Below, one piece after another: positions 50,967-64,000 of a DNA stretch of 64,000 bases; positions within the stretch are counted from its first letter, which is position 1, and each line of letters starts with the position of its first letter. A program made the translations under genes and the position numbers. A model generated the notes under the pieces. It saw only the letters and a list, made by a program, of their open reading frames with translations. It was not told the DNA's origin and did not search any database. The stretch comes from Flavobacteriaceae bacterium PS02337 (GTDB taxonomy: Bacteria > Bacteroidota > Bacteroidia > Flavobacteriales > Flavobacteriaceae), in contig JASCOE010000012.1 in the NCBI GenBank assembly GCA_029959285.1, positions 62,001-126,000 of the forward strand, written 5' to 3'.

Positions 50967-53237
50967 ATGAAAAAGCAATGTGCAAAAGCCATTTTAACCG
51001 CGGCTTTATTTTTTGGGATTTCTTCAAGTTGGGCGCAGCAAACTCCGTCAGCGACAGCAACAAATCCAGTAAACAACTACAATTATCATGATGCCTTCGG
51101 TCCACATTTTTACACAAAAAATGGAACTTCAACTCGTACAGCAAGCGGTCAGCCGGGTGTTGAGTACTGGCAAAATAGAGCCGATTATCAAATTACGGCT
51201 AAGTTAAATGCAACTACAAATGAAATTGTAGGTACAGACGAAATCACGTATACTAATAATAGTCCAGATAAATTAGGTTTTCTTTGGTTGAATTTAGATC
51301 AGAATTTATTTAAAGAAGATTCTAGAGGAAATGCTGTTGTGCCATTGACAGGAAGCCGTAACGGAGCTCAAGGCCAGGTTTTTGACGGTGGAAATAAAAT
51401 TAAATCAGTAAAAGTAATTGCTGGAGGAAAAAGCAAAACAGAAGTTGAAGCAAAATATATTATTACAGATACTAGAATGCAGATTTTTCTTCCTCAAGAA
51501 TTAGCTGCAAAAGGAGGTTCTGTAAAAGTAAAAATCGAATTTTCTTTCATTGCACCATTTGAAGGATCTGACAGAATGGGAGTTTTAGAAACTAAAAACG
51601 GAAAAATCTTCACTATTGCACAATGGTATCCACGTATGTGTGTATATGATGACGTAAGAGGTTGGAATACGCCTCCTTATTTAGGTGCTTCTGAGTTTTA
51701 TTTGGAATATGGAGATTTTGATGTAAAATTGACAGTTCCAGGAAATCAATTTGTGGTAGCTTCTGGTGAATTAATAAATGGACAAGAAGTATTTTCTGCA
51801 GATCATTTCAAAAAATATAAAGACGCTTTAAACAGTGATAAAACCGTAACAATTCGTTCGGCAGAAGAAGTAAATGCAACTGCTACAGCAAATGCAAACA
51901 CAGAAAAAACATGGCATTATAAAATTAAAAATGCACGTGATTTTTCTTGGGCATCTTCTGCGGCTTTTGTCTTAGATGGTGCTAAAATTAATCTTCCAAG
52001 CGGAAAAAAATCTTTAGCATTATCTGCTTATCCTGTTGAAAGTGCAGGGCAGGGCGCTTACGGACGTTCTACTGAATACGTAAAAGCTTGTATAGAACAT
52101 TATTCTAAACAATGGTTTGAATATCCTTATCCAGCAGCTACAAACGTAGCAGGAAATGAAGGCGGAATGGAATATCCGGGAATAGTTTTCTGTAGTTGGG
52201 AATCTAAAGGACAAGACCTTTGGGGAGTTACAGATCATGAATTTGGGCATATTTGGTTTCCTATGATTGTAGGTTCTAACGAAAGATTGTTCGGATGGAT
52301 GGATGAAGGTTTTAATACATTTATCAATTCATTAAGCACAGCTGCATTTAATAATGGAGAATACAAAGACAGACCAACAGATTTGCATGAAGAAGCGGAA
52401 TCTTTTACACGTCCTGATTTGGAAACTATTATGAGTTCTCCTGATAATATGAAGGAAGCAAATATTGGAATGTTATGCTATTTTAAACCAAGTGCAGGTC
52501 TTGTGCTTTTAAGAGAGCAAGTTTTAGGAAAAGAGCGTTTTGATATCGCTTTTAGAACTTATATTGAGCGTTGGGCTTACAAACATCCACAGCCAGATGA
52601 TTTTTTTAGAAGTATGGAAAATGTTGCTGGCGAAGATTTAAGTTGGTTTTGGAGAAGTTGGTACGTAAACAACTGGCGTTTTGATCAAGGAATTAATTCT
52701 ATCAAATATGTGAAAAATGATCCTGCAAAAGGAGCTGTAATTACTGTAGAAAATTTCGATAAAATGCCAATGCCAATTGTTTTAGACGTAAAAGCAAAAA
52801 GCGGAAAAGTAACAAGAGTTAATTTGCCAGTAGAAATTTGGCAGAAAAATAATTCTTGGTCTTTCAAACACAATTCTACAGAAGAAATCGAAAGTATTAC
52901 TTTAGATCCTGATCATGCTTTTCCTGATAATAATGAGTCAAATAATGTTTGGACAGCAGCAAAAGGTAAAATTGAAAAAGATATTATTTTAGATGCATAT
53001 TTAGGTAAATATGCTACAGCAAAATCTCCTTTAACTATCGAATTAACAGAAAAAAATAGCGCTTTAACTGCTGAACTTCCAAATTATCCGAAGTTTACAT
53101 TAGAGCCAGTTGCTGGTGAAAAAGATACATTTGAATCTAGAAGAGCTGGATTAAAATTTAAATTTAATGAAGCTAAAACTGGTTTCGATATGACAATTTT
53201 AGGAAACGGACAAGTAATGCAGTTTACTAAGAAATAA
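50967..53237 (+). CDS. Secreted M1-family metallopeptidase
   Basis: From ATG 50967 the protein has 756 residues with a signal peptide ending SSSWAQQ; the TTG eight codons earlier would put charged residues before it. The zinc site is HEFGH at about 424-428 with the third ligand in WMDEGF (about E447), the exact HEXXH-X18-E spacing of gluzincins. GGMEYPG supplies the M1 substrate motif (normally GXMEN). The N-terminal part resembles the M1 beta-saddle; the C-terminal 200 residues have LDVKAKSGK-type beta segments. It is likely a periplasmic or secreted aminopeptidase. It is followed by a strong terminator. Confidence 0.93.
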
Positions 53238-53260
53238 AATAATAGAAATATAATCTGTTT

Positions 53261-53300
53261 AAAACCCGATAATTAGAAATAATTATCGGGTTTTGTTTTT
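53261..53300 (+). terminator. Terminator of the M1 peptidase gene
   Basis: AAAACCCGATAATT (53261-53274) pairs with AATTATCGGGTTTT (53281-53294) around AGAAAT. It isolates the upstream gene from the arginine-cluster promoter 50 bases on. Confidence 0.92.
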
Positions 53301-53350
53301 TATTGTATTAACAAAACGCAAAAAAAATGTTAGAATTTTATTTTTTTGTT

Positions 53351-53378
53351 TTGAAAATAAAAAAAAGATGTACTTTTG
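53351..53378 (+). promoter_or_regulatory. Strong promoter before the arginine cluster
   Basis: TTG at 53351-53353, a 17-base spacer and TACTTTTG at 53371-53378 match the flavobacterial consensus. The start of transcription should be near 53382-53385, at the first base of a structured leader and some 320 bases before the first large gene. Confidence 0.75.
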
Positions 53379-53383
53379 CACCG

Positions 53384-53470
53384 ATGAATAAAATAAGTTT
53401 ACATATAACTTCTTTGTCACGGACAAACTCACCGATTACTTCTCCCGAAGTACGGACACTAGCTCTATAG
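53384..53470 (+). CDS. Possible 28-residue leader peptide inside the structured leader
   Basis: A frame begins MNKISLHITSLSRTNSPI and ends RTLAL. Its ATG is at or next to the predicted transcript start, so translation would be nearly leaderless. Both arginine codons are CGG, which is rare in this AT-rich DNA. A ribosome-mediated arginine attenuator is conceivable, but there is no run of arginine codons. The RNA interpretation is stronger. Confidence 0.2.
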   Translation: MNKISLHITSLSRTNSPITSPEVRTLAL

Positions 53471-53505
53471 TGTTCACTGAGTTTTATAGCCGTATATTTA
53501 TTCAT
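53384..53505 (+). ncRNA. Structured leader RNA candidate upstream of the arginine cluster
   Basis: The segment starts at the predicted transcript start and its ends pair: ATGAATAAA (53384-53392) with TTTATTCAT (53497-53505). Inside are three hairpins: TTTGTC-ACG-GACAAA (53413-53427), ACTTC-TCCC-GAAGT (53438-53451) and GGACACTA-GCTCTA-TAGTGTTC (53454-53475, one G-U). AAACTCA (53425-53431) can instead pair with TGAGTTT (53478-53484), which would break the first hairpin, so two mutually exclusive forms are possible. The motif ACGGAC occurs twice. This is what a cis-regulatory RNA, attenuator or small RNA would look like. I do not recognise the class; Flavo-1 RNA is one named family to compare. 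Folding was done by eye. Confidence 0.6.
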
Positions 53506-53706
53506 ACCCATTTTTCATTTTGAAATCACATAATTTGTCCATTGGACAAACATATCCTAAAAGTATTTATTATTTTGTAAATTTTCTTGATCAAGCTTTT
53601 GATTTTGAGAATGTTACTTGTTTTGTGCTTAATTTTATTGGATTCAATTCTGGATTTCAAACTAAACAATATGCTTTAATTTTTAACTCTAACTTCAATT
53701 ATTGAA
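53506..53706 (+). promoter_or_regulatory. AT-rich leader with TTTGTCC/GGACAAA hairpin before the GNAT gene
   Basis: The rest of the leader is AT-rich. It holds one perfect hairpin, TTTGTCC-ATT-GGACAAA (53534-53550), whose arms resemble the first hairpin of the structured leader and could exchange partners with it. A 61-codon frame at 53520-53705 has AT-rich, aromatic composition and is not supported as a gene. Confidence 0.4.
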
Positions 53707-54354
53707 ATGAAGATCTCTATTGTTGTTACCCAGGAAGAACACTTCAAATTCGCACAAGAAATCTGCGATACGATAGAATCATCTGCCTTATTAAGAGGTA
53801 CGGGGATTGCTAAAAGAACTCCTGAGTACATTCAGAAAAAAATGGCAAACGGTGATGCAATGATTGCTTTGGCTGATGGAAAGTTTGCTGGTTTTTGTTA
53901 CATAGAAAGCTGGCAGCACGGAAAATTTGTTGCTCATTCTGGATTAATTGTTCATCCAGATTATAGAAGTCATGGTTTGGCAAAAAAGATAAAATCAAAA
54001 GTTTTTGATTATTCGTTGAAAAGATTTCCAGATGCTAAAATATTCGGAATCACAACTGGTTTAGCTGTTATGAAAATTAACTCTGAATTAGGCTATAAAC
54101 CAGTTCCTTTCTCAGAATTGACAACCGATCCTAGCTTCTGGGCTGGCTGTAAAACCTGTACTAATTTTGAAATTCTGCAAAGTAAACAAAATAAAATGTG
54201 TCTTTGTACCGGCATGTTATACGATCCAAAGGAAAAACAAAAAACACCGCCAAGACATCCTTTTAACGAGGCTGTTTTAAGCAGACTAAAAAAAATTAAA
54301 CAGGCTTTATTCTTAAACAAAATATTGTCATTTATTTTTTTATTTAAAATTTAA
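53707..54354 (+). CDS. GNAT acetyltransferase, candidate N-acylglutamate synthase of the arginine cluster
   Basis: The 215-residue protein is a GNAT fold: AGFCYIESWQHGKFVAHSGL, the acetyl-CoA loop HPDYRSHGLAKKIKSKV, and ITTGLAVMKINSELGYKPV. The C-terminal part is unusual and cysteine-rich (WAGCKTCTNFEIL, then MCLCTGM), followed by a basic tail of about 35 residues. It is the first gene after the leader and is 55 bases upstream of argG. No argA or argJ is present in the cluster, so this protein is the best candidate for the first step, acylating glutamate. That assignment is inferred from context. Confidence 0.78.
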   Translation: MKISIVVTQEEHFKFAQEICDTIESSALLRGTGIAKRTPEYIQKKMANGDAMIALADGKFAGFCYIESWQHGKFVAHSGLIVHPDYRSHGLAKKIKSKVFDYSLKRFPDAKIFGITTGLAVMKINSELGYKPVPFSELTTDPSFWAGCKTCTNFEILQSKQNKMCLCTGMLYDPKEKQKTPPRHPFNEAVLSRLKKIKQALFLNKILSFIFLFKI

Positions 54355-54409: not shown

Positions 54410-55603
54410 ATGAAAAAAGTAGTATTAGCTTATAGCGGAGGATTAGATACCTCGTATTGTTTGAAATATTTAAAAAATGAAAAAGGATACGAAGTTCACA
54501 CTGTTCTTGTAGACACAGGAGGATTTTCTGCTGAAGAATTAACAGCTATTGAAAAAAGAGCTTATGAGTTAGGAAGTGCACAACACGCCAACTTAACAAT
54601 TTTAGATAAATATTACGATAAAGCTATAAAATACCTGATTTTTGGTAATGTATTAAAAAATAATACTTATCCGTTATCAGTAAGTGCAGAGCGTGTTTTT
54701 CAAGCAATTGAAGCTATAAAATATGCTAAAAAAGTAGGAGCAACTGCAATCGCTCACGGAAGTACTGGTGCAGGAAACGATCAAATCCGTTTCGATTTGA
54801 TTTTCCAAACGATTGCTCCGGAAATAGAAATCATTACACCAATTAGAGATTTAAAACTTTCAAGACAAGAAGAAGTTGATTATTTAGCTCAAAACGGAGT
54901 TCACTATTCTTGGGAAAAAGCACAATATTCTATTAATAAAGGACTTTGGGGAACAAGTGTTGGAGGAAAAGAAACTCTGACTTCAAGTCAGCCATTGCCA
55001 AGTGAAGCGTATCCTTCACAATTACAAAAAGAAGGTGAAGAAAAAGTAACGCTTCATTTTGAACAAGGAGAATTAGTTGGTTTAAACGGAAAAACGGATA
55101 AACCTTCTAATAATATCGTTGCTCTTGAAAAACTGGCAAGTGCTTACGCAATTGGTAGAGATATTCACGTTGGAGATACGATTATCGGAATTAAAGGTAG
55201 AGTTGGTTTCGAAGCTGCAGCGCCATTAATTATCATCAAAGCACACCATTTATTAGAGAAACATACGCTAGGAAAATGGCAGCAATACTGGAAAGAACAA
55301 TTAGGAAATTGGTACGGAATGTTATTTCACGAAGGTCAGTTCTTAGATCCAGTTATGAGAAATATTGAAACTTTCTTGCAAGACACTCAAAAAACAGTAA
55401 ACGGAACGGTAACAGTTTCATTAAAACCATACCATTTCTCACTTGACGGAATCGAATCTGAAAATGATTTAATGAACACAGGTTTTGGTCAATACGGAGA
55501 AATGAACAATGCATGGACATCTGAAGATGCAAAAGGATTTATCAAAATTCTTGGAAATGCACAAAACATATTTTCATCTGTAAATCAATTAGATCATGAT
55601 TAA
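54410..55603 (+). CDS. argG: Argininosuccinate synthase
   Basis: The 397-residue enzyme joins citrulline and aspartate using ATP. It has the PP-loop VVLAYSGGLDTSYCLKYL at the N-terminus, IAHGSTGAGNDQIRFD in the middle, and the SINKGLWGTSVGG segment of the substrate site. Length is normal. The 3' end overlaps argC by eight bases, so the two are translationally coupled. Confidence 0.97.
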   Translation: MKKVVLAYSGGLDTSYCLKYLKNEKGYEVHTVLVDTGGFSAEELTAIEKRAYELGSAQHANLTILDKYYDKAIKYLIFGNVLKNNTYPLSVSAERVFQAIEAIKYAKKVGATAIAHGSTGAGNDQIRFDLIFQTIAPEIEIITPIRDLKLSRQEEVDYLAQNGVHYSWEKAQYSINKGLWGTSVGGKETLTSSQPLPSEAYPSQLQKEGEEKVTLHFEQGELVGLNGKTDKPSNNIVALEKLASAYAIGRDIHVGDTIIGIKGRVGFEAAAPLIIIKAHHLLEKHTLGKWQQYWKEQLGNWYGMLFHEGQFLDPVMRNIETFLQDTQKTVNGTVTVSLKPYHFSLDGIESENDLMNTGFGQYGEMNNAWTSEDAKGFIKILGNAQNIFSSVNQLDHD

Positions 55604-56573
55604 TGTCGGAATTATTGGTGGTTCTGGCTACACAGCTGGAGAACTCATCAGAATTTTAATGTATCACCCAAAAGTAAACATCGATTTTGTTTACAGTACA
55701 ACAAACGCTGGAAAACCGCTTTCTGTGGCGCACCAAGATTTGATGGGCGATATCGAAATGAATTTCACAGCTGAAATCAACCCAAATGTCAATGTTGTTT
55801 TCTTGTGTTTAGGTCACGGAAAATCGATTTCATTTTTGAAAGAAAATCAGTTTGCAAGCCACACTAAAATCATCGATTTAGGAAATGATTTCAGATTGAA
55901 TAAAGATGCTCATTTCGAAGGAAAAGATTTCATCTACGGATTGCCTGAAATAAATAAAGCCGAAATCAAAAAAGCAAATTATATTGCAAATCCTGGTTGT
56001 TTTGCAACTGCTATTCAATTGGCTTTATTGCCTTTAGCTAAACATAATTTATTGAATAACGATGTTCATATTAATGCAACAACCGGAAGTACAGGAGCAG
56101 GAGTAAGTCTTTCAGAAACTTCTCATTTCAGCTGGAGAAACAATAATATGTCGCATTATAAAGCTTTCGAACACCAGCATTTAGGAGAAATTGGAGAAAG
56201 TTTAGTTCAATTGCAAGACGATTTTGACAGCGAATTGCTTTTTATTCCGAATAGAGGCGATTTTCCAAGAGGAATTTTTGCAACCTTATATACGTTATGC
56301 GATGATAGTTTGGAACAATTGGTAGCTAAATATGAAGAGTTCTATAAAGACGAACCTTTCGTAACCGTTACCACAACAAACATCAACATGAAACAAGTGG
56401 TGCAAACGAATAAATGTATTATTAGTTTATTGAAAAAAGGAAACCGGGTTCTCATAACATCAATTATAGATAACTTAACCAAAGGTGCTTCAGGACAAGC
56501 GATTCAAAATATGAATTTAATGTTCGGTTTAGAAGAAACCACAGGTTTACATTTGAAACCAAGCGGATTTTAG
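55596..56573 (+). CDS. argC: N-acetyl-gamma-glutamyl-phosphate reductase
   Basis: The 325-residue enzyme reduces the acylated glutamyl phosphate to the semialdehyde. It has the NADP motif GIIGGSGYTAGELIRIL, the catalytic cysteine at about C135 in ANPGCFATAIQLA, and RGDFPRGIFATLYT. The start lies inside the last codons of argG. Either N-acetyl or N-succinyl substrates are possible in this phylum, depending on the first and sixth steps. Confidence 0.96.
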   Translation: MINVGIIGGSGYTAGELIRILMYHPKVNIDFVYSTTNAGKPLSVAHQDLMGDIEMNFTAEINPNVNVVFLCLGHGKSISFLKENQFASHTKIIDLGNDFRLNKDAHFEGKDFIYGLPEINKAEIKKANYIANPGCFATAIQLALLPLAKHNLLNNDVHINATTGSTGAGVSLSETSHFSWRNNNMSHYKAFEHQHLGEIGESLVQLQDDFDSELLFIPNRGDFPRGIFATLYTLCDDSLEQLVAKYEEFYKDEPFVTVTTTNINMKQVVQTNKCIISLLKKGNRVLITSIIDNLTKGASGQAIQNMNLMFGLEETTGLHLKPSGF

Positions 56574-56587
56574 ATTGTTGGTTAACC

Positions 56588-56635
56588 GTTTAATCGTTAA
56601 TTCGGTTAATCGATTAAACAAATCAACGATTAAAC
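56588..56635. repeat. GTTTAATCG-type imperfect palindrome in the argC-argD spacer
   Basis: The left arm GTTTAATCGTTAATT (56588-56602) pairs with AATCAACGATTAAAC (56621-56635) with one mismatch. The first 29 bases (56588-56616) recur exactly at 60024-60052, after proB. Confidence 0.8.
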
Positions 56636-56652
56636 AATTAAACAAAACAAAA

Positions 56653-57792
56653 ATGAACTTATTCAACGTTTACCCATTATACAACATAACTCCAGTAAAA
56701 GCAATTGATTGTACCATTATTGACGACAAAGGAGTAGAATATTTAGATTTATACAGCGGACATGGTGTGATTTCTATTGGACACACACAGCCGGATTATG
56801 TAGCAAAATTGAAAAATCAATTAGATAATTTAGGTTTTTATTCGAATGCCATTCAGAATCCTTTGCAAGTGGAGTTAGCTCAGAAATTAGGAAAACTTTC
56901 TGGTCTTGAAGATTACGAATTGTTTTTATGCAGTTCTGGTGCCGAAGCCAATGAAAATGCTTTAAAATTAGCTTCTTTCCATAACGGAAAATCAAGAGTT
57001 GTAGCTTTTGATAATTCTTTCCACGGAAGAACTTCTGCAGCCGTTGCTGTTACAGATAATAAGAAAATTGTTGCACCATTAAACGCACAGCAAGAAGTTA
57101 CTTTTTTACCTTTAAACCAAATCGAATTGGTTGAAGCTGAATTAGCTAAAGGCGATGTTACAGCAGTTATAATTGAAGGAATTCAAGGAGTTGGCGGTTT
57201 AGATCAAGGAACAACTGAATTTTTTCAGGCTTTAGAAAAAGCATGTAAAAAACACGATGTGGTTTTGATTTTAGATGAAGTTCAGTCAGGATACGGAAGA
57301 AGCGGAAAATTCTTCGCCTTCCAACACCACGGAATCAACGCTGATATTATTTCAGTTGCGAAAGGAATGGGGAACGGATTCCCAGTTGGAGCGATTTTGA
57401 TTTCTCCAAAATTCGAAGCAAGTTTCGGATTATTAGGAACTACTTTCGGCGGAAGCCATTTGTCTTGTGCTGCTGGAATTGCAGTTTTAGATGTAATTGA
57501 AAAACTGGATTTACAGAAAAATGTAAACGAAGTTTATGCATATTTCTTAGAGAAAATCAAAGAAGTTGAAGGCATCAAACAAGTAAAAGGAAAAGGATTA
57601 ATGCTTGGAGTTGAATTTGATTTTGATGTTGCAGCTCTAAGAAAGAAATTAATCATCGAAAAACACATTTTTACAGGAAGTGCAAACAATAAAAATCTAT
57701 TAAGAATTTTACCGCCTTTAACTGTGAAAAAAGCAGATATCGATACTTTCGTAAAAGCTTTAAAAGAAAGTTTAGAAGAATTAAAAAACTAA
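56653..57792 (+). CDS. argD: Acetylornithine aminotransferase (class III PLP enzyme)
   Basis: I start at ATG 56653 (379 residues): the 26 codons upstream come from the palindromic repeat and are not protein-like. It has SSGAEANENALKLA, NSFHGRTSAAVAVT, LDEVQSGYGRSGKFFAF and the PLP lysine at about K237 in SVAKGMGNGFPVGA. It converts acyl-glutamate semialdehyde to acyl-ornithine; ornithine aminotransferase is a related possibility, but the arginine context favours ArgD. Confidence 0.93.
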   Translation: MNLFNVYPLYNITPVKAIDCTIIDDKGVEYLDLYSGHGVISIGHTQPDYVAKLKNQLDNLGFYSNAIQNPLQVELAQKLGKLSGLEDYELFLCSSGAEANENALKLASFHNGKSRVVAFDNSFHGRTSAAVAVTDNKKIVAPLNAQQEVTFLPLNQIELVEAELAKGDVTAVIIEGIQGVGGLDQGTTEFFQALEKACKKHDVVLILDEVQSGYGRSGKFFAFQHHGINADIISVAKGMGNGFPVGAILISPKFEASFGLLGTTFGGSHLSCAAGIAVLDVIEKLDLQKNVNEVYAYFLEKIKEVEGIKQVKGKGLMLGVEFDFDVAALRKKLIIEKHIFTGSANNKNLLRILPPLTVKKADIDTFVKALKESLEELKN

Positions 57793-57805
57793 TTCTCATC
57801 AAATA

Positions 57806-57838
57806 AAACCCGACAAGTTTTTAAAAGCTGTCGGGTTT
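57806..57838 (+). terminator. Hairpin between argD and proA, possible terminator or processing site
   Basis: AAACCCGACA (57806-57815) pairs with TGTCGGGTTT (57829-57838). The bases after it are AGAACTCACA rather than a T tract, so read-through into proA is likely. Confidence 0.6.
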
Positions 57839-57894
57839 AGAACTCACAATTTGAGTTTTAAAGCAACCAAAAAACAACCAACTCACTTGAAATT

Positions 57895-59088
57895 ATGAAA
57901 CCATTATCAATTGAAAAACGCAATCTCGTTTTGCGGTCTATGGCAAATCTGGTCGAGCAGGAGCGGAGTCAGATTATCTTGACCAATCAGGAAGATCTTG
58001 CCGATTACGACGGCTCTGATTTAGCAATGGAAGAACGCTTAAAAGTAGATGATAAAAAAGTCGACGAAATGATTTTATCATTAAACCAATTGACTTCTCA
58101 GGAAGATCCTGTCGGCGTTGAGCGTTTTCATTTTACTCATGATAATGGAATAAAAGTCATCAATAAAACAGCCGCTTTCGGAACGGTTTTAATTATTTAC
58201 GAATCTCGCCCAGATGTTACAATTGAAGCGGGTGGAATCGCTTTTAAATCTGGAAATAAGATTTTATTAAAAGGAGGAAAAGAGTCTTTAAAATCAAATT
58301 TGAAAATCGTAAGTCTTTGGCATAAAGCTTTAGAAGAAAATGGAGTTTCAAAAAACTGGGTTGAATATCTGAATTACAATAGAACAGAAACTCAGGCTTT
58401 TTTAGAAAAACCAACTCAAAAAGTCGATTTAATAGTTCCAAGAGGCGGAGAAAAATTAATTGAGTTTGTAAAAGCGCACGCAACATGTCCAGTAATTGTA
58501 AGCGGACGAGGAAATAATTTTGTTTACGTTCATGAAGATGCTGATACAGATTTAGCTTTAAAAGTAATTTTAAATGCCAAAACAGCGAAAATATCGGCTT
58601 GTAATGCTTTAGATAAAGTTTTGATAAGCTCTAAGCTTCCAAATTTCGAAGGTTTTACAGCAATGTTAATTGAAGCTTTAGTTGAATCAAAAGTAGAAGT
58701 GATTGTCGATAAATCTTTAGTAAATTTTGAAAATACTAAAACACTTCAAAACGAAGATATTTGGTACGAAGAATTTCTAGATTATAAAATCGTAATCGGA
58801 ACTATTGATTCTCAAGATCACGCTATTGATATGATTAATAAGTATTGTGGAGGACATTCTGCAGCAATTATTACCAGAGATAATGAAGTTGCACAGCAGT
58901 TTATGGAATCGATAGATGCCGCAGCAGTTTACCAAAATGCATCAACCAGATTTACAGACGGAGGACAATTTGGTTTAGGTGGAGAATTAGCGATAAGTAC
59001 GGATAAATTACATCAAAGAGGACCAATTGGCCTTCAACATTTGGTAACCAATAAATGGTACGTGTACGGAGAAGGACAGATACGATAA
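57895..59088 (+). CDS. proA: Glutamate-5-semialdehyde dehydrogenase
   Basis: The 397-residue protein reduces glutamyl phosphate in proline synthesis. It has VLIIYESRPDVTIEAGGIAF, LKGGKESLKSN, and the catalytic cysteine at about C236 in KISACNALDKV. It ends with FTDGGQFGLGGELAIST and HQRGPIGLQHLVT. It lies with proB inside the arginine cluster. Glutamate is the common precursor, so joint control is plausible. Confidence 0.95.
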   Translation: MKPLSIEKRNLVLRSMANLVEQERSQIILTNQEDLADYDGSDLAMEERLKVDDKKVDEMILSLNQLTSQEDPVGVERFHFTHDNGIKVINKTAAFGTVLIIYESRPDVTIEAGGIAFKSGNKILLKGGKESLKSNLKIVSLWHKALEENGVSKNWVEYLNYNRTETQAFLEKPTQKVDLIVPRGGEKLIEFVKAHATCPVIVSGRGNNFVYVHEDADTDLALKVILNAKTAKISACNALDKVLISSKLPNFEGFTAMLIEALVESKVEVIVDKSLVNFENTKTLQNEDIWYEEFLDYKIVIGTIDSQDHAIDMINKYCGGHSAAIITRDNEVAQQFMESIDAAAVYQNASTRFTDGGQFGLGGELAISTDKLHQRGPIGLQHLVTNKWYVYGEGQIR

Positions 59089-59259
59089 TTTTAGATTTCA
59101 GATTTTAGATTGATGATTAACGATTTTTGATTTAAGATTATTTGAATTTGGAATTTATTTATTGGAATTTAATTATAGATAAAGCTTTGTGAACTTAGCG
59201 TTTTGTAAACACAAACAACATAAAAAAACCTTGCGCCCTTTGCGGTTAAAAAACAAGAC
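59089..59259. repeat. proA-proB spacer made of word-like repeats
   Basis: The left part has GATTTTAGATT and GATTTCAGATTTTAG words, shared with the spacer at 37323. The right part has TTTGTGAACTTAGCG, TTTTGTAAACAC and CCTTGCGCCCTTTGCGG words. No gene or terminator is seen. Confidence 0.5.
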
Positions 59260-60021
59260 ATGGCAAAAAAAAGGATTTTATTAAAAATAGGAAGTAACAC
59301 TTTAACCAAAGAAACCAATCATATTTCTCGGGGAAAGATTGAAGATCTCGGAATACAGATTGCAGCTTTAAACGATGAATATGAGTTTATCATCGTGAGT
59401 TCAGGAGCAATTGCGGCAGCAAAGCAATTTGTAAAACTGGATAATCAAGATAAAGATGTTTTTGTAAAACAGGCATTAGCTTCAATCGGACAGCCTCATT
59501 TAATGCGGATTTACAATGAAAATTTCAAAGATTTAGGGCTAAATACCTCGCAGTGTTTGCTTTCTTATTCTGATTTCGAAAAAGAGCAGACCAAAAAGAA
59601 TATTGTAAATACAATTAATGTCTTAGTTAAAAACAATTACATTCCGATTATCAATGAAAATGATACCGTTGCTACAGATGAAATTCGGTTTGGAGATAAT
59701 GATAAATTAGCGGCTTTAACAGCGGTTCTTTTAAATGTTGATATTCTGATAATTGCAACCAATACAAACGGAATTTATACAAAAGATTCCATTCACGATG
59801 AAAATCCGGAAACGATAAAATTGGTAAATGATTTAAAATCGCTCGAAAAAGAAATCGGCGAATCAAAATCATCACACGGAACAGGAGGAATGCAATCCAA
59901 AATAGAAGCAGTCGCAATTTCAAAAGCAGCCAATATAGAAACCTGGATTGTCAATGGATTGAATGATAATTTTATTTTAAAGGCGTTGAAGGAAGAGATT
60001 CCGTTTACGAAAATCGTTTAA
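59260..60021 (+). CDS. proB: Glutamate 5-kinase (no PUA domain)
   Basis: The 253-residue amino acid kinase phosphorylates glutamate for proline synthesis. It has RILLKIGSNTLTKE, FIIVSSGAIAAA, INENDTVATDEI and FGDNDKLAALTAVLL, and ends with HGTGGMQSKIEAV. The PUA domain that follows the kinase in E. coli ProB is absent, a short form seen in other bacteria. The gene is followed by the repeated GTTTAATCG sequence. Confidence 0.95.
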   Translation: MAKKRILLKIGSNTLTKETNHISRGKIEDLGIQIAALNDEYEFIIVSSGAIAAAKQFVKLDNQDKDVFVKQALASIGQPHLMRIYNENFKDLGLNTSQCLLSYSDFEKEQTKKNIVNTINVLVKNNYIPIINENDTVATDEIRFGDNDKLAALTAVLLNVDILIIATNTNGIYTKDSIHDENPETIKLVNDLKSLEKEIGESKSSHGTGGMQSKIEAVAISKAANIETWIVNGLNDNFILKALKEEIPFTKIV

Positions 60022-60023
60022 CT

Positions 60024-60144
60024 GTTTAATCGTTAATTCGGTTAATCGATTAGAAAATGAACATAAAAAAGCAAAAGGATAAAGTTAGATTTGTTTAAGC
60101 AGCAAAACAATTAAACAAATCAACGATTAACCGATTAAACAAAA
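60024..60144. repeat. Second GTTTAATCG-type repeat, proB-argF' spacer
   Basis: Bases 60024-60052 are identical to 56588-56616. A related reverse-complement segment (AATCAACGATTAACCG, about 60118-60133) lies 70 bases on, giving an overall inverted arrangement. Confidence 0.75.
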
Positions 60145-60149
60145 AAACA

Positions 60150-61103
60150 ATGAACTATATTTCAATAAAAGACATCAACTCATTATCAAAATGGGTAAAA
60201 CAAGCGATAAAAATCAAAAAGAATCCGCTTAAAAATCAAAGTTTAGGAAAGAATAAAACTTTGGGAATGTTATTCTTCAATCCAAGTTTAAGAACGCGTT
60301 TGAGTACTCAAAAAGCGGCTATAAACTTAGGAATGAACGTGATGGTAATGAATTTTACTAACGAAGGATGGACGTTAGAATTCGAAGACGGAGCGGTAAT
60401 GAATTCTGGTGCTTCAGAACATATTAAAGAAGCGGCAGAAGTAGTTTCTCAATATTGTGATATTATCGCAATTCGTGCTTTTGCAGGTTTAGAAAACAAA
60501 GAAAAAGATTATCAAGAAACTGTAATTTCAGGGTTTTTGAAATACGCTACAGTGCCAATAGTAAATATGGAAAGTGCTATTCGTCATCCGTTGCAGTCAT
60601 TAGCAGATGCGATTACAATGGAAGAATTCAAGCCTAGACATAAAGAAAAACCAAAAGTGGTTCTTTCTTGGGCTCCACATCCAAAAGCGTTGCCACAGGC
60701 AGTTGCTAATTCATTCGTAGAAATGATGCAAATGCAAAAAGATATGGATTTTGTAATCACGCATCCAGAAGGTTATGAATTAAGTCCAGAAATCACAAAA
60801 GACTGTAAAGTCGAATACAATCAAGATAAAGCTTTTGAAAATGCCGATTTCGTTTACGTTAAAAACTGGAGTAATTTCAACGATTACGGAAAAGTAACTA
60901 ACAGCGATTCAAATTGGACTGTTACAGCAGAGAAAATGGCTTTAACCAATAATGGAAAGTTCATGCACTGTCTTCCAGTTCGTCGTAACGTAATTGTAAG
61001 TGATGAAGTTTTAGACGGAGAAAATTCAATCGTAATCGAACAAGCGAATAACAGAACGTATTCAGCACAATTAGTTTTACAAAAAATTCTTAAAAAAATA
61101 TAG
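60150..61103 (+). CDS. argF': N-acylornithine carbamoyltransferase (ArgF' type)
   Basis: The 317-residue transcarbamylase has the carbamoyl-phosphate site FFNPSLRTRLST, HPLQSLADA and the HCLPVRRN motif. In the Bacteroidota pathway the substrate is N-succinyl- or N-acetylornithine rather than ornithine. The residue that I recall as the succinyl/acetyl switch (Pro90 in Bacteroides fragilis, Glu92 in Xanthomonas) aligns with about S89 here, in VMNSGASEH. The acyl group used is therefore uncertain. It lies between proB and argB. Confidence 0.92.
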   Translation: MNYISIKDINSLSKWVKQAIKIKKNPLKNQSLGKNKTLGMLFFNPSLRTRLSTQKAAINLGMNVMVMNFTNEGWTLEFEDGAVMNSGASEHIKEAAEVVSQYCDIIAIRAFAGLENKEKDYQETVISGFLKYATVPIVNMESAIRHPLQSLADAITMEEFKPRHKEKPKVVLSWAPHPKALPQAVANSFVEMMQMQKDMDFVITHPEGYELSPEITKDCKVEYNQDKAFENADFVYVKNWSNFNDYGKVTNSDSNWTVTAEKMALTNNGKFMHCLPVRRNVIVSDEVLDGENSIVIEQANNRTYSAQLVLQKILKKI

Positions 61104-61107
61104 TTTT

Positions 61108-61196
61108 TTGAGGTGCTAAGGTTCTAAGTTTCTAAGATGCTAAGAAACGATGAGCAAAAGCCTTAGTCCCTTAATACCTTAGCAACTTAGAACCTC
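61108..61196. repeat. CTTAG/CTAAG-word repeat reaching the argB start
   Basis: GAGGTGCTAAGGTTCTAAGT (from 61110) and CCTTAGCAACTTAGAACCTC (61175-61194) are mostly reverse complements. Copies of TTCTAAG and CTTAG words fill the spacer right up to the argB ATG, leaving no room for a ribosome binding site. Confidence 0.75.
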
Positions 61197-61973
61197 ATGA
61201 AGAAAGTTACCGTAATCAAAATAGGTGGAAACATCATCGACAATCCAGCAGAATTAGAACAATTTTTAACCGATTTTTCTAAAATTGAAGGCTATAAAGT
61301 TTTAGTTCACGGTGGTGGAAAATCGGCTACCAAAATGGCTCAGAGTATTGGTTTAGTTCCACAAATGATTGACGGACGCCGAATTACAGATGCTCCTATG
61401 CTTGATGTTGTGGTTATGATTTACGCCGGACAAATCAACAAACATGTTGTAGCACAATTGCAGGCAAAAGACAATAATGCGATTGGTTTTTCGGGAGCTG
61501 ATGGAAATTTGATTCAGTCCACAAAAAGAAATCACCCAACAATAGATTACGGATTTGTAGGCGATGTAAAGCAAGTTAATACCAAATTACTGGCAACTTT
61601 ACTAGAAGCTAGAGTTGTTCCTGTTTTTTGCGCCATTACGCACGATAAAAACGGACAACTATTAAACACAAATGCAGATACAATTGCAAGCGAATTATCA
61701 ATTGCATTATCTGAAGTTTTTGATGTTACGCTGACTTACTGTTTTGAAAAACAAGGCGTTTTACTAGATTCAGAAGATGATTCATCTGTAATAACAGAAA
61801 TCAACGAAACATTATACAATAAACTAAAAGAGGAAAAAGTAATCCATTCCGGAATGATTCCAAAATTGGATAATTGCTTCAATAGTTTATCAAGAGGCGT
61901 TCAGAAAATCAAAATTGGGCATCACAGAATGCTTCAAAATGCAGATATTCCGCATACAACGATTACATTATAA
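61197..61973 (+). CDS. argB: Acetylglutamate kinase
   Basis: The 258-residue kinase phosphorylates N-acylglutamate. It has KIGGNIIDNPAELEQFL, the glycine-rich VHGGGKSATKMAQ, VVPVFCAITHDKNGQLLNTN, given here only by its ends (VVPVFCAI, LLNTN), and ends with HSGMIPKLDNCFNSL. Length is on the short side but all motifs are intact. The start follows the spacer repeat immediately. Confidence 0.95.
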   Translation: MKKVTVIKIGGNIIDNPAELEQFLTDFSKIEGYKVLVHGGGKSATKMAQSIGLVPQMIDGRRITDAPMLDVVVMIYAGQINKHVVAQLQAKDNNAIGFSGADGNLIQSTKRNHPTIDYGFVGDVKQVNTKLLATLLEARVVPVFCAITHDKNGQLLNTNADTIASELSIALSEVFDVTLTYCFEKQGVLLDSEDDSSVITEINETLYNKLKEEKVIHSGMIPKLDNCFNSLSRGVQKIKIGHHRMLQNADIPHTTITL

Positions 61974-61979
61974 AAAATG

Positions 61980-62216
61980 TTGCCACGAATTGACACTAAT
62001 TTTTGCTGTTAAAAGAGAAAATAATTTTAGATCTACACTAAAAAGTTAATTTTGATTTTAAATCTTTTATAAAAAAATAATGTTTGAAAATCCGTGTAAT
62101 TAGTGGCAAAAAAATAGAGCGCACAAGGTATTTTAAATAAATTTGCGCAAGTAAAAATGGTCAAAGGAAAGCTCAAAAACTTTGCTGCTTTGTCCCTTTG
62201 AGCCTTTGAACCTTAT
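61980..62216. repeat. argB-argE spacer with two palindromic repeat families
   Basis: TTGCCACGAATTGACAC (61980-61996) is related to the reverse complement of GTGTAATTAGTGGCAA (62094-62109), the same family as at 43406 and 63304. A second pair at about 62159-62216 uses GGTCAAAGGAAAGCTCAAA and TTTGAGCCTTTGAACC. No gene is seen. Confidence 0.6.
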
Positions 62217-62220
62217 TAAA

Positions 62221-63291
62221 ATGAAAAATATAGATACGCTTACCCAGGAAGCAATTAGTTTATTAAAAAGTCTAATCGAAACCCCTTCATTTTCAAGTGA
62301 AGAAGATCAAACGGCTCTTTTAATCGAAAATTGGTTCAATCAGAATGAAATTCCTTTCAAGAGAGAAAATAACAATGTGTGGGCTTTCAACAAATATTTC
62401 GACGAAAATAAACCAACACTTTTACTAAACTCACATCACGATACTGTACGTCCAAATCAGGCGTATACCAACGATCCGTTTAAAGCGATTGAAAAAGACG
62501 GTAAATTATTCGGTTTAGGAAGTAATGATGCAGGAGGCTGTTTGGTTTCGTTATTAGCAACTTTTGTACATTTTTACGAAAATCAAAACCTATCTCACAA
62601 TATTGTAATTGTGGCTTCCGCCGAAGAAGAAAGCAGTGGGAAAAACGGCTTAAACAGCGTTTTGAAAAGTTTACCAGAGTTAGATTGCGCGATTGTTGGA
62701 GAACCAACTTTAATGCAATTGGCTGTTGCTGAAAAAGGATTGTTAGTTCTTGACGTAAAAGTAAAAGGAACCGCAAGCCACGCCGCACACCAAAATGATG
62801 ATAATGCATTGTATAAATCAATTCCAGTAATGGAATGGTTTAAAAACTATAAATTCGACAAAATCTCAGACGTTTTAGGGCCAGTAAAAATGACCGTAAC
62901 GCAGATTAATGCAGGAAAACAGCATAATGTTGTTCCGTCTGAATGTGATTTAGTTGTTGACATTCGTGTGACAGATCGTTATACAAATGCTGAAATTCTC
63001 GAAGTGGTAAAAGCAAATATAAATGCCGAAGTTACACCAAGATCAATGCATTTAAACGCATCTTCTATTCCAATTGCACACGGTTTAGTTCAAGCGGGAA
63101 TCGCTTTAGGAAGAACAACGTATGGTTCGCCAACACTTTCAGATCAGTCCGTTTTAAGCTGTCAGTCTTTGAAACTTGGGCCAGGAGAAACATTACGCTC
63201 GCATTCAGCAGACGAATTTATTTTTGTAAATGAAATTGAAGAAGGAGTCGATTTGTATATCAAAATACTAACCGATTTCTTTAAATTATAA
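62221..63291 (+). CDS. argE: Acetylornithine deacetylase-like M20 peptidase
   Basis: From ATG 62221 the protein has 356 residues; 13 codons upstream come from a spacer repeat. It has the M20 metal sites LLLNSHHDTVRP, GLGSNDAGGCLVSLLA and the EEESSGKNG acid pair. The lid domain contains VKGTASHAAHQNDDNA. It removes the acyl group from acyl-citrulline or acyl-ornithine; in the ArgF' route acyl-citrulline is the expected substrate. Position between argB and argH supports the call. Confidence 0.92.
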   Translation: MKNIDTLTQEAISLLKSLIETPSFSSEEDQTALLIENWFNQNEIPFKRENNNVWAFNKYFDENKPTLLLNSHHDTVRPNQAYTNDPFKAIEKDGKLFGLGSNDAGGCLVSLLATFVHFYENQNLSHNIVIVASAEEESSGKNGLNSVLKSLPELDCAIVGEPTLMQLAVAEKGLLVLDVKVKGTASHAAHQNDDNALYKSIPVMEWFKNYKFDKISDVLGPVKMTVTQINAGKQHNVVPSECDLVVDIRVTDRYTNAEILEVVKANINAEVTPRSMHLNASSIPIAHGLVQAGIALGRTTYGSPTLSDQSVLSCQSLKLGPGETLRSHSADEFIFVNEIEEGVDLYIKILTDFFKL

Positions 63292-63303
63292 GAAAAGAAA
63301 AAC

Positions 63304-63412
63304 CGTCACGAATTCACGAATTAATTTTTTACTATCTAAATGATATTAATTCGAATTAATTCGAAAAAAATAATCGCAAAGATTATCAAAAATAATTCGT
63401 GAATTCGTGGCG
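63304..63412. repeat. Inverted repeat of the CCACGAATTCACGAATTA family
   Basis: CGTCACGAATTCACGAATTA (63304-63323) and TAATTCGTGAATTCGTGGCG (63393-63412) are reverse complements in 19 of 20 positions. The AT-rich core between them would form a long cruciform or terminator-like structure before argH. Confidence 0.8.
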
Positions 63413-63428
63413 AAAAAAAACATTACCT

Positions 63429-64000
63429 ATGAAACTTTGGGAAAAAGGAATACCAACAGATAAACAAATCGAACAATTCACAGTTGGAAACGACCGTGAA
63501 CTGGATTTGGTTTTAGCAAAATACGATGCTTTAGGTTCAATCGCTCATGCCAAAATGTTGGGACAAATTGGTTTGTTAACTCAGGAAGAAACAACTTCTT
63601 TAGTTGATGCATTAAACGAAATCATCGCTGATATCGTAGTGGGTAATTTCGAAATCGAAGATAGTTTTGAAGACGTACATTCTAAAATTGAGTATCTTTT
63701 AACAGCAAAACTAGGCAATGCAGGAAAGAAAATCCATACCGCACGCTCTCGAAACGATCAGGTCTTAGTAGACGTTCATTTGTATTTAAAAGACGAATTA
63801 AAATCGATAAAAGAACAGGTAAAAACTTTGTTTGACTTGTTAATGGAATCAGCAGAGAAACATCAAAACGTTTTATTACCAGGTTATACACATTTACAAA
63901 TCGCTATGCCATCGTCATTCGGAATGTGGTTTTCTGCTTACGCTGAAAGTTTAATTGATGATGTTACAATGTTAAATGCTGCTTCAAAAATTGTAGACCA
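63429..64000 (+). CDS. argH: Argininosuccinate lyase, N-terminal part (cut by window edge)
   Basis: About 190 residues are present from ATG 63429. They begin MKLWEKGIPTDKQIEQF and include EDVHSKIEYLL, TARSRNDQVLVDVHLYL, and the PGYTHLQIAMPSSFGMW block, the signature of the fumarase/aspartase superfamily lyase that makes arginine and fumarate. The gene continues beyond 64000. It is the last visible gene of the arginine cluster, following argE after 137 bases of repeat-rich spacer. Confidence 0.95.
   Translation, partial: MKLWEKGIPTDKQIEQFTVGNDRELDLVLAKYDALGSIAHAKMLGQIGLLTQEETTSLVDALNEIIADIVVGNFEIEDSFEDVHSKIEYLLTAKLGNAGKKIHTARSRNDQVLVDVHLYLKDELKSIKEQVKTLFDLLMESAEKHQNVLLPGYTHLQIAMPSSFGMWFSAYAESLIDDVTMLNAASKIVD

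What the first reader, a model, noticed from the sequence alone, without database searches (positions are those of the whole stretch)
53351..53706. Candidate cis-regulatory RNA in front of the arginine/proline cluster
A consensus promoter ends just before a 122-nt segment with complementary ends (ATGAATAAA/TTTATTCAT) enclosing three hairpins, and with an alternative pairing AAACTCA/TGAGTTT that is incompatible with the first hairpin. A further hairpin, TTTGTCC/GGACAAA, downstream shares its arms with that first one. The layout (promoter, closed multi-hairpin fold, switchable stem, then biosynthetic genes) is what a metabolite- or ribosome-controlled leader looks like. A 28-codon frame with two rare CGG arginine codons overlaps it, so translation attenuation is also possible. 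Class not recognised.
Basis: partly seen in the sequence, partly recalled or inferred. Interest (0 to 1): 0.78.

Follow-up and report, generated by a model that had tools for sequence, protein, structure and literature searches.

The report
Two-ORF arginine leader attenuator
The stretch in front of this bacterium's arginine genes encodes a tiny peptide with two very rare arginine codons inside a folded RNA, followed by a second, almost arginine-free frame, so the cell can probably sense arginine shortage by how its ribosomes move through it; it is a new variant of a known kind of control.

Summary
In detail: promoter, 122-nt closed fold (53384-53505; z = -4.1) and 28-codon frame with two CGG codons, in front of an arginine operon (GNAT, argG ... 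argH). Comparison turns the 'class not recognised' RNA into a ribosome-read arginine leader. ORF1 is present in 45/45 strong genus loci and, with ATG, in 77/80 named loci. Codon 13 is CGG in 99 of 100 distinct leaders (AGG in one), although CGG is 1.6% of Arg codons in the window's long ORFs and no tRNA-Arg(CCG) was found. A second frame, ORF2 (TTG 53520 to TGA 53705), not in the finding, is open in 40/44 and 74/76 loci, Arg-depleted (18 vs 74 expected), shows no clear amino-acid selection, and ends at the GNAT start. P1-P3 vary with compensation. Of 47 loci read in other Flavobacteriaceae genera, 42 carry Arg-run leaders at the same place, and three Flavobacterium loci are intermediates with CGG at codons 13 and 24 in two of them. 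Best reading: leader-peptide attenuation by arginine supply; the output step (ORF2 coupling, Rho or a weak terminator) is inferred. No riboswitch evidence; no Rfam match. New variant of a known kind.

The parts
53344..53378 (+). Bacteroidetes-type promoter: TTTTGTTTTG upstream element and TACTTTTG -7 box (53371-53378)
   Evidence: sequence; TAnnTTTG within 16 nt of the ORF1 ATG in 44 of 45 loci, 5 nt between box and ATG in 39, so the predicted transcript starts at or next to the AUG
53384..53470 (+). ORF1, leader peptide MNKISLHITSLSRTNSPITSPEVRTLAL-stop, predicted leaderless
   Evidence: 45/45 loci, 77/80 named loci with ATG; gaps inside ORF1 are 3 or 6 nt in 32 aligned leaders; modest coding signal
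53420..53422 (+). Arg codon 13, CGG
   Evidence: CGG in 44/45, AGG in 1; CGG in 77/77 named loci; 99 of 100 distinct leaders pooled
53453..53455 (+). Arg codon 24, CGG (its GG pairs at the base of P3)
   Evidence: 45/45; forced by the search pattern in the named set
53384..53392 (+). P0 5' arm ATGAATAAA, contains the ORF1 start codon
53497..53505 (+). P0 3' arm TTTATTCAT, 15-23 nt upstream of the ORF2 TTG
   Evidence: swap test negative in Flavobacterium; a helix in the same place is supported in 15 tandem leaders of other genera
53419..53431 (+). P1 5' arm ACGG..AAACTCA, overlaps codon 13
53478..53493 (+). P1 3' arm TGAGTTT.....CCGT
   Evidence: 7 of 7 modelled P1 pairs with double changes, 62% of cells paired; own vs swapped arm p = 0.0018 in 31 representatives; in the MFE of 31 of 45 loci
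53437..53452 (+). P2 hairpin around ACTTC-TCCC-GAAGT
   Evidence: 95.6% of cells paired, 2 of 6 pairs with double changes; swap test p = 7e-7
53454..53475 (+). P3 hairpin GGACACTA-loop-TAGTGTTC, contains the ORF1 stop codon
   Evidence: 91.9% of cells paired, 4 of 8 pairs with double changes; counted as terminator-like by a loose scan
53520..53705 (+). ORF2, 61 codons from TTG to TGA, ends 1 nt before the GNAT ATG; no Arg codon in this genome
   Evidence: open 40/44, 74/76; other frames open 1/44 each; Arg 18 observed vs 74 expected in 2436 codons; no clear amino-acid selection
53534..53550 (+). hairpin TTTGTCC-ATT-GGACAAA inside ORF2
   Evidence: sequence; exchange with ORF1 not supported
53707..54354 (+). 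GNAT acetyltransferase, first gene of the operon (candidate N-acetylglutamate synthase, inferred)
   Evidence: Pfam PF00583; no NCBIfam family
54410..63998 (+). argG, argC, argD, proA, proB, N-acetylornithine carbamoyltransferase, argB, ArgE/DapE-family deacylase, argH (cut by the window end)
   Evidence: NCBIfam; argC, proA, proB, the carbamoyltransferase and argB pass curated cut-offs, argG, argD, the deacylase and the cut argH are named by best hit below cut-off

Best explanation
It is a ribosome-mediated arginine attenuator with two tandem leader frames. Shown by comparison: a promoter places a 26-28-codon ORF (ORF1) almost at the 5' end. ORF1 carries conserved arginine codons at positions 13 and 24, almost always the rarest one (CGG). 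It overlaps a covarying fold (P1, P2, P3) that P0 closes over its own start codon. A second frame (ORF2) is kept open, nearly free of arginine, and ends at the first gene's start codon. Inferred: when charged tRNA-Arg is ample, ribosomes pass ORF1 quickly, the fold closes (P0 over the 5'-terminal AUG and close to the ORF2 start), ORF2 and the operon are poorly translated, and transcription may end early. When arginine is short, ribosomes pause at CGG13 or CGG24 and hold P1 or P3 open. A pause at codon 13 leaves room for a following ribosome on the AUG, which would keep P0 open. ORF2 is then translated, needing almost no arginine, and carries ribosomes to the GNAT start. Which output step is used (translational coupling, Rho, or a weak terminator) is not settled.
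For: ORF1 in 45/45 loci and, with ATG, 77/80 named loci. CGG is 7 of 449 Arg codons in 41 long window ORFs but 90 of 100 Arg codons in ORF1. Codon 13 is CGG in 44/45 and AGG in 1, and CGG in 77/77 named loci. The genome's 51 tRNA matches include only tRNA-Arg TCG, ACG and TCT. ORF2 is open in 40/44 where mononucleotide shuffles give 1.4% each, other frames 1/44 each, Arg 18 vs 74 expected; open in 74/76 and Arg 25 of 4208 codons in the named set. Fold: z = -4.1; covariation above all 500 shuffles and every slid control; P1 and P2 swap tests. Arg-run leaders upstream of the same gene in 42/47 loci of other genera, null 11%. L086 and L088 have CGG at codons 13, 21 and 24 of a first leader and a TTG-started second leader ending CGG-CCG-stop; L087 has three CGG in its first leader and ..RRRFRP-stop in the second. 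Six of nine loci of the GNAT paralogue have leaders with 2-3 CGG near the stop. The operon makes arginine.
Against: No transcript, ribosome or expression data. The amino-acid coding signal of ORF1 is modest (synonymous share 0.31 vs 0.23 and 0.19 in other frames). The GG of each CGG is invariant in the 32-leader RNA alignment, and the one exception at codon 13 is AGG, so RNA constraint could explain part of the CGG conservation. P0 fails the swap test in Flavobacterium; P1 is paired in 62% of cells on an alignment fitted to it and is in the MFE of only 31 of 45 loci. ORF2 has no AUG; it is broken in L035 and L053, stops 15 nt short in L043 and L051, and runs on into the gene in L046. One MAG (L183) has a frameshift in ORF1. 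The tRNA set of the draft is incomplete (no tRNA-Ile among the 51). The loci are related, so counts are not independent.
Confidence: 0.8

Rival explanations
1. A metabolite-binding riboswitch for arginine or ornithine: P1, P2 and P3 form a three-way-junction aptamer, and ORF1 is a by-product of the conserved RNA.
For: Stable fold; covarying P1-P3; invariant nucleotides such as GGA at columns 40-42; genus-wide conservation.
Against: Gaps inside ORF1 are multiples of 3 in 32 aligned leaders while the stop-to-ORF2 spacing varies in all three phases. CGG is 90 of 100 Arg codons. Other genera have differently built leaders that share Arg runs, not this fold. ORF2 openness and Arg depletion are unexplained. 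No Rfam match.
Confidence: 0.08
2. A nascent-peptide arrest sensor (overlaps with the best explanation): the ORF1 peptide itself binds arginine or ornithine in the ribosome (as TnaC or SpeFL do for their ligands, recalled), so peptide sequence matters more than Arg-tRNA charging.
For: Residues outside P1-P3 are conserved (HITS.SR). Relatives usually end in RRP-stop, with proline as last codon (stop after RRP in 36 of 42), like TnaC (recalled).
Against: The amino-acid coding signal is modest. The rarest codon is kept rather than Arg alone. Related leaders differ in sequence except for Arg.
Confidence: 0.12
3. The leader is real but the second frame is a small protein gene, and regulation acts on or through that protein.
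For: ORF2 is open in nearly all loci; mean BLOSUM62 of its codon changes is slightly above the next best frame (1.15 vs 1.07).
Against: Synonymous share 0.257, below another frame's 0.321; non-AUG start; length set by the GNAT start; the homologous second leaders of L086-L088 end in RP-stop instead.
Confidence: 0.05

Closest known systems
Salmonella speF leader orf34 (PMC6386406; abstract and passages seen)
   Same: Short ORF near the transcript start with rare Arg codons (AGG CGG at codons 12-13) whose translation sets the fold of a long leader; arginine supply controls the downstream genes; Rho involved.
   Different: Gene is ornithine decarboxylase, not arginine synthesis; one leader ORF, Shine-Dalgarno start; Arg codons consecutive; no Arg-poor second frame reaching the gene described in the passages seen. 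Sequence similarity to ORF34 was not searched.
Classical amino-acid leader-peptide attenuators (trp, his, leu, thr operons; recalled)
   Same: Leader peptide with codons of the end product upstream of its biosynthetic operon, overlapping RNA helices.
   Different: Two spaced rare codons instead of a run; no strong terminator with U-tract before the gene; two tandem frames; predicted leaderless start.
RRRP-stop arginine leaders of other Flavobacteriaceae (found here)
   Same: Same position before the same GNAT gene; Arg codons; often two tandem leaders, with a long-range helix closing the first in the 15 tested; linked through L086-L088.
   Different: Stop codon usually in the loop of a CCC-GUAA-GGG hairpin, followed by a covarying hairpin with TAGGTGAGTCC; Arg runs mostly CGT/CGC; the window's ORF2 lacks RRP-stop and runs to the gene.
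Leader-peptide attenuation noted in Flavobacterium psychrophilum (PMC9723704; passages seen)
   Same: Same genus; 'strong clues' for leader-peptide attenuation upstream of amino-acid biosynthesis operons.
   Different: The passages seen name no arginine leader; its supplementary table could not be opened here.
Flavo-1 RNA
   Same: Flavobacterial structured RNA.
   Different: No Rfam family matches at gathering score, and Flavo-1 is not among the 16 weak matches at E up to 10.

Membership tests
Ribosome-mediated leader-peptide attenuator | Short ORF between promoter and biosynthetic operon | tested here: met
   ORF1 conserved 45/45 and 77/80, promoter box 44/45, arginine operon; translation itself not measured
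Ribosome-mediated leader-peptide attenuator | Codons of the pathway's end product, conserved or enriched | tested here: met
   Two conserved Arg codons; 90 of 100 ORF1 Arg codons are CGG against 7 of 449 in long ORFs
Ribosome-mediated leader-peptide attenuator | Conserved RNA helices overlapping the ORF | tested here: met
   P1-P3:
Ribosome-mediated leader-peptide attenuator | Mutually exclusive helices (terminator and antiterminator) before the gene | tested here: inconclusive
   The exchange GGACAAA/TTTGTCC lacks support. A loose scan counts P3 with tail ACTGAGTTTT as terminator-like (0.1 such sites expected in shuffles), but the tail is weak. Not filed as a classical trp-type transcription attenuator
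Ribosome-mediated leader-peptide attenuator | Expression responds to the amino acid | not testable with these tools
   no expression data
speF orf34 / DUF2618 leader | DUF2618 peptide in front of an ornithine decarboxylase | tested here: not met
   The genes downstream are GNAT, argG and the arginine pathway; ORF1 lacks the HIRRT core quoted
Riboswitch (any Rfam class) | Match to a covariance model | tested here: not met
   0 matches in the window at gathering score; 16 matches at E up to 10 in 53200-53800, all below gathering score
Riboswitch (any Rfam class) | Ligand binding by RNA alone | not testable with these tools
   needs in-line probing

The most novel reading that the evidence does not exclude
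A new attenuator architecture: a leaderless first ORF reads arginine supply through two rare CGG codons decoded only by wobble, and a second frame, kept open and arginine-free but largely indifferent in amino-acid sequence, acts as a ribosome runway that delivers translation to the operon (and may shield it from Rho) only when the first ribosome has paused. It evolved from an ancestral pair of Arg-codon leader peptides by loss of the second leader's RP-stop.
Probability: 0.35. Interest if true: 0.75.

Novelty: new variant of a known kind. Interest (0 to 1): 0.6.

Why it matters
Amino-acid leader peptides are well described in proteobacteria and actinobacteria (recalled) but little in Bacteroidota, which lack Shine-Dalgarno initiation. 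This locus gives a genus-wide arginine leader, with a family-level relative, that can be tested in a genetically tractable strain. It also shows selection for an open, arginine-poor frame with no clear selection on its amino acids, a signature that could be used to find more translated runway frames.

Tried and rejected
Rfam search of the whole window and a permissive search of 53200-53800: nothing at gathering score, 16 weak matches at E up to 10, mostly on the upstream terminator. A covariance-model search of 299 family genomes found only two Flavobacterium, own genome included; only 11 candidates per genome were scored, so it is no evidence of absence. The switch GGACAAA (53421-53427) with TTTGTCC (53534-53540): rejected for lack of covariation. 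P1/P3 3' arms with ORF2: no support (p = 0.99). Pairing of the GNAT start with ORF1 or ORF2: no support (p = 0.89 and 0.66). Readthrough or frameshift from ORF1 into ORF2: rejected, the spacing varies in all three phases. A canonical terminator between ORF1 and GNAT: none convincing; P3 passes a loose scan. Small-protein function for ORF2: no clear amino-acid selection. RNAalifold alone recovered only 10 pairs on A1 and 5 on A3, because stem arms shift in the sequence alignment. Literature: eight searches, seen as listings (some capped), showed no paper on an arginine leader in Flavobacteria or Bacteroidota; only open-licence PMC full text was searched and no supplements could be opened.

Full report
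WHAT IS THERE. It folds far better than shuffles (53384-53506: -29.1 vs -16.5 +/- 3.1 kcal/mol, z = -4.10, 0 of 200). In the predicted fold P0 (ATGAATAAA/TTTATTCAT) closes a hairpin at 53395-53411 and P1 (ACGG..AAACTCA/TGAGTTT..CCGT), which in turn encloses P2 (ACTTC-TCCC-GAAGT) and P3 (GGACACTA/TAGTGTTC). ORF1 (53384-53470) is MNKISLHITSLSRTNSPITSPEVRTLAL with CGG at codons 13 and 24. Downstream lies an arginine operon with proA and proB in it (NCBIfam; argG, argD, the ArgE/DapE deacylase and the cut argH are named by best hits below the curated cut-offs). Its first gene is a GNAT protein with Pfam PF00583 but no NCBIfam family; that it is an N-acetylglutamate synthase is inference from context.

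CONSERVATION IN THE GENUS. A DNA search of 101 genomes of the genus, own included, listed matches in 84 at E <= 0.01, most of the weak ones short; 45 are strong (E <= 1e-8, one per genome, fetched). The GNAT gene follows in all 45 and ORF1 is present in all 45 with 26-28 codons. Of the 56 other genomes, 49 were searched for GNAT: 12 have a match, three of these (L086-L088) the closer orthologue (72-77% identity) and nine only a more distant one (54-59%). They are Flavobacterium, apart from one 'Flavobacteriaceae' MAG and one MAG labelled Klebsiella pneumoniae that I take for a misplaced Flavobacterium contig (79% GNAT identity). ORF1 with ATG was found in 77 of 80; the others are a GTG start (L214), a MAG with a shifted frame (L183) and a contig end (L247). 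A GNAT match is in 79 of 80; the exception (L171) is cut 293 nt after the motif begins.

ARGININE CODONS. In 41 window ORFs of 200 or more codons CGG is 7 of 449 Arg codons (1.6%). In ORF1 of the 45 loci it is 90 of 100; codon 13 is CGG in 44 and AGG in 1; codon 24 is CGG in 45. In the named set codon 13 is CGG in 77 of 77; codon 24 was part of the search pattern there. Pooled over 100 distinct leaders (from 122 loci, some of them the same genomes), codon 13 is CGG in 99 and AGG in 1. The own genome's 51 tRNA matches, all classified, hold tRNA-Arg with anticodons TCG, ACG and TCT only. CGG would then be read by wobble from the single TCG gene (decoding rule recalled). The assembly is a draft of 56 contigs and no tRNA-Ile appears among the 51, so a missing gene cannot be excluded. 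A caution: the GG of CGG is invariant at both places in the RNA alignment, so part of this conservation may be structural.

IS ORF1 TRANSLATED? Gaps inside ORF1 in the 32-sequence alignment are 3 or 6 nt, while gaps after the stop have many lengths. The synonymous share of single-base codon differences is 0.313 in frame against 0.230 and 0.187 in the other frames, mean BLOSUM62 1.27 vs -0.62 and 0.69 (31 representatives less L053). That is a coding signal, but a modest one. The TAnnTTTG box lies within 16 nt of the ATG in 44 of 45 loci and 5 nt before it in 39. PMC6847099 (passages seen) accepts promoters with 4-5 nt between box and start in F. johnsoniae, so the transcript should begin at or next to the AUG. 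Leaderless mRNAs are 5.5% in F. psychrophilum (PMC9723704, passages seen).

THE SECOND FRAME. From TTG 53520 a 61-codon frame runs to TGA 53705, one base before the GNAT ATG. It is open to within 15 nt of the gene in 40 of 44 loci, where mononucleotide shuffles give 1.4% each; the other frames are open in 1 of 44 each; Arg is 18 against 74 expected in 2436 codons. In the named set it is open in 74 of 76 scored, with 25 Arg in 4208 codons. It is broken in L035 and L053, stops 15 nt before the gene in L043 and L051, and reads on into the gene in L046; L052 was not scored because its TTG is followed by GAA. There is no clear sign that its amino acids matter: synonymous share 0.257 (other frames 0.321 and 0.177), mean BLOSUM62 1.15 (1.07 and -0.10), over 1277 pairs. 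Its phase relative to ORF1 varies. So it appears selected to be open and arginine-poor rather than for its product.

STRUCTURE. On 39 matches from 42 sources (34 of the 45 strong loci plus eight others) aligned to a covariance model, the whole structure exceeds all 500 shuffles on every measure and every slid control; P1 has double changes in 7 of 7 modelled pairs but only 62% of cells paired; P2 95.6%, P3 91.9%, P0 87.4%. Single-sequence folds contain four or more P1 pairs in 31 of 45 loci. P0 is thus conserved in sequence but its pairing is not proven in Flavobacterium.

RELATIVES. Of 199 genomes searched in the family, 130 have the GNAT gene, 128 of them in other genera; I read upstream regions of 47 of those 128. 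In 42 of 47 an upstream ORF has three or more Arg in six codons (null 11%), and in 42 of 47 the pattern CGN-CGN-CCN occurs. In the 42 aligned elements (A3) a stop codon follows at once in 36 (TAA 32, TAG 4), typically in a CCC-GUAA-GGG loop, and a second hairpin has covarying arms (28 distinct arm pairs, 41 of 42 with 5 or more pairs, mean length 6.1 own vs 4.1 swapped). Many loci have two tandem leaders. In 15 such loci that I picked, the first leader's 5' part pairs with the segment after its stop (-10.6 own, -8.7 swapped, -5.4 shuffled), a helix placed like P0. No Rfam match in ten of these loci. A strict pattern for this element hit 4 of 395 genomes of the class: 4 of the 8 from other genera of the family and 0 of 381 from outside it. 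L086-L088 link the two forms. L086 and L088 have CGG at codons 13, 21 and 24 of the first leader (L088 MKKTKLHSNLTSRKTLTLTSRSERSVS), and their TTG-started second frame ends CGG-CCG-TAA; L087 has CGG at codons 18, 22 and 25 and a second leader ending RRRFRP-stop. Six of nine loci of the GNAT paralogue in other Flavobacterium have leaders with two or three CGG near the stop, for example ..STSRSSRSRA. Arginine codons are thus the shared theme while sequence and fold diverge.

HOW IT WORKS. Best supported: arginine supply is read by ribosomes on ORF1. Inferred: codon 13 lies 36 nt from the AUG, about one ribosome footprint (recalled), so a ribosome paused there would let the next sit on the AUG and keep P0 open; a pause at codon 24 would open P2/P3. 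When ORF1 is read fast the fold can close over the 5'-terminal AUG and beside the ORF2 start. ORF2, nearly free of Arg, would be translated under starvation and bring ribosomes to GNAT. Salmonella orf34 (PMC6386406, abstract and passages seen) works by related logic with Arg codons at positions 12-13 and Rho. Here Rho, coupling and a weak terminator (P3 passes a loose scan; the 16 nt before ORF2 are 58% T against 42% in the rest) cannot be told apart.

NOVELTY. Leader-peptide attenuation is known, and 'strong clues' for it in F. psychrophilum amino-acid operons are in print (PMC9723704, passages seen). I found no paper on this leader in eight searches of open-licence full text. New here are the arginine leader, the open arginine-poor second frame and the family-level link: a new variant of a known kind. 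The rivals overlap with the best explanation, so the confidences need not add up to one.

Noticed in passing
L058-L085, L099-L117 (upstream of the GNAT gene): Leader element in other Flavobacteriaceae genera (42 of 47 loci read): Arg-run peptide with RRP, usually a stop in a CCC-GUAA-GGG hairpin loop, then a covarying hairpin with conserved TAGGTGAGTCC; no Rfam match in the ten loci scanned.
   Followed up: partly
L089-L092, L094, L095: Leaders of a GNAT paralogue in other Flavobacterium carry 2-3 CGG Arg codons near the stop (e.g. SRSSRSRA-stop), apparently another arginine-codon leader.
   Followed up: partly
L060, L067, L101, L104, L108, L109: In 6 of 42 aligned elements the codon after RRP is not a stop and the frame reads on, while the hairpin is kept, so the hairpin is conserved apart from the stop.
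   Followed up: no
L200: A contig labelled as a Klebsiella pneumoniae MAG carries the Flavobacterium-type leader and a GNAT gene (79% identity): probably a mis-binned contig.
   Followed up: no
L183: MAG whose ORF1 frame is shifted by an extra base; error or a real loss.
   Followed up: no
window 53260-53295: Intrinsic-terminator-like hairpin (16 pairs, T tail) after the preceding gene, so the leader probably starts its own transcript.
   Followed up: no
window 53707-54354: The first gene of the operon is a GNAT protein without an NCBIfam family; candidate for the N-acetylglutamate synthase step in these bacteria.
   Followed up: no
own genome G000: Only three tRNA-Arg genes found (TCG, ACG, TCT) among 51 tRNA matches; none dedicated to CGG; no tRNA-Ile either, so the draft set is incomplete.
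   Followed up: yes
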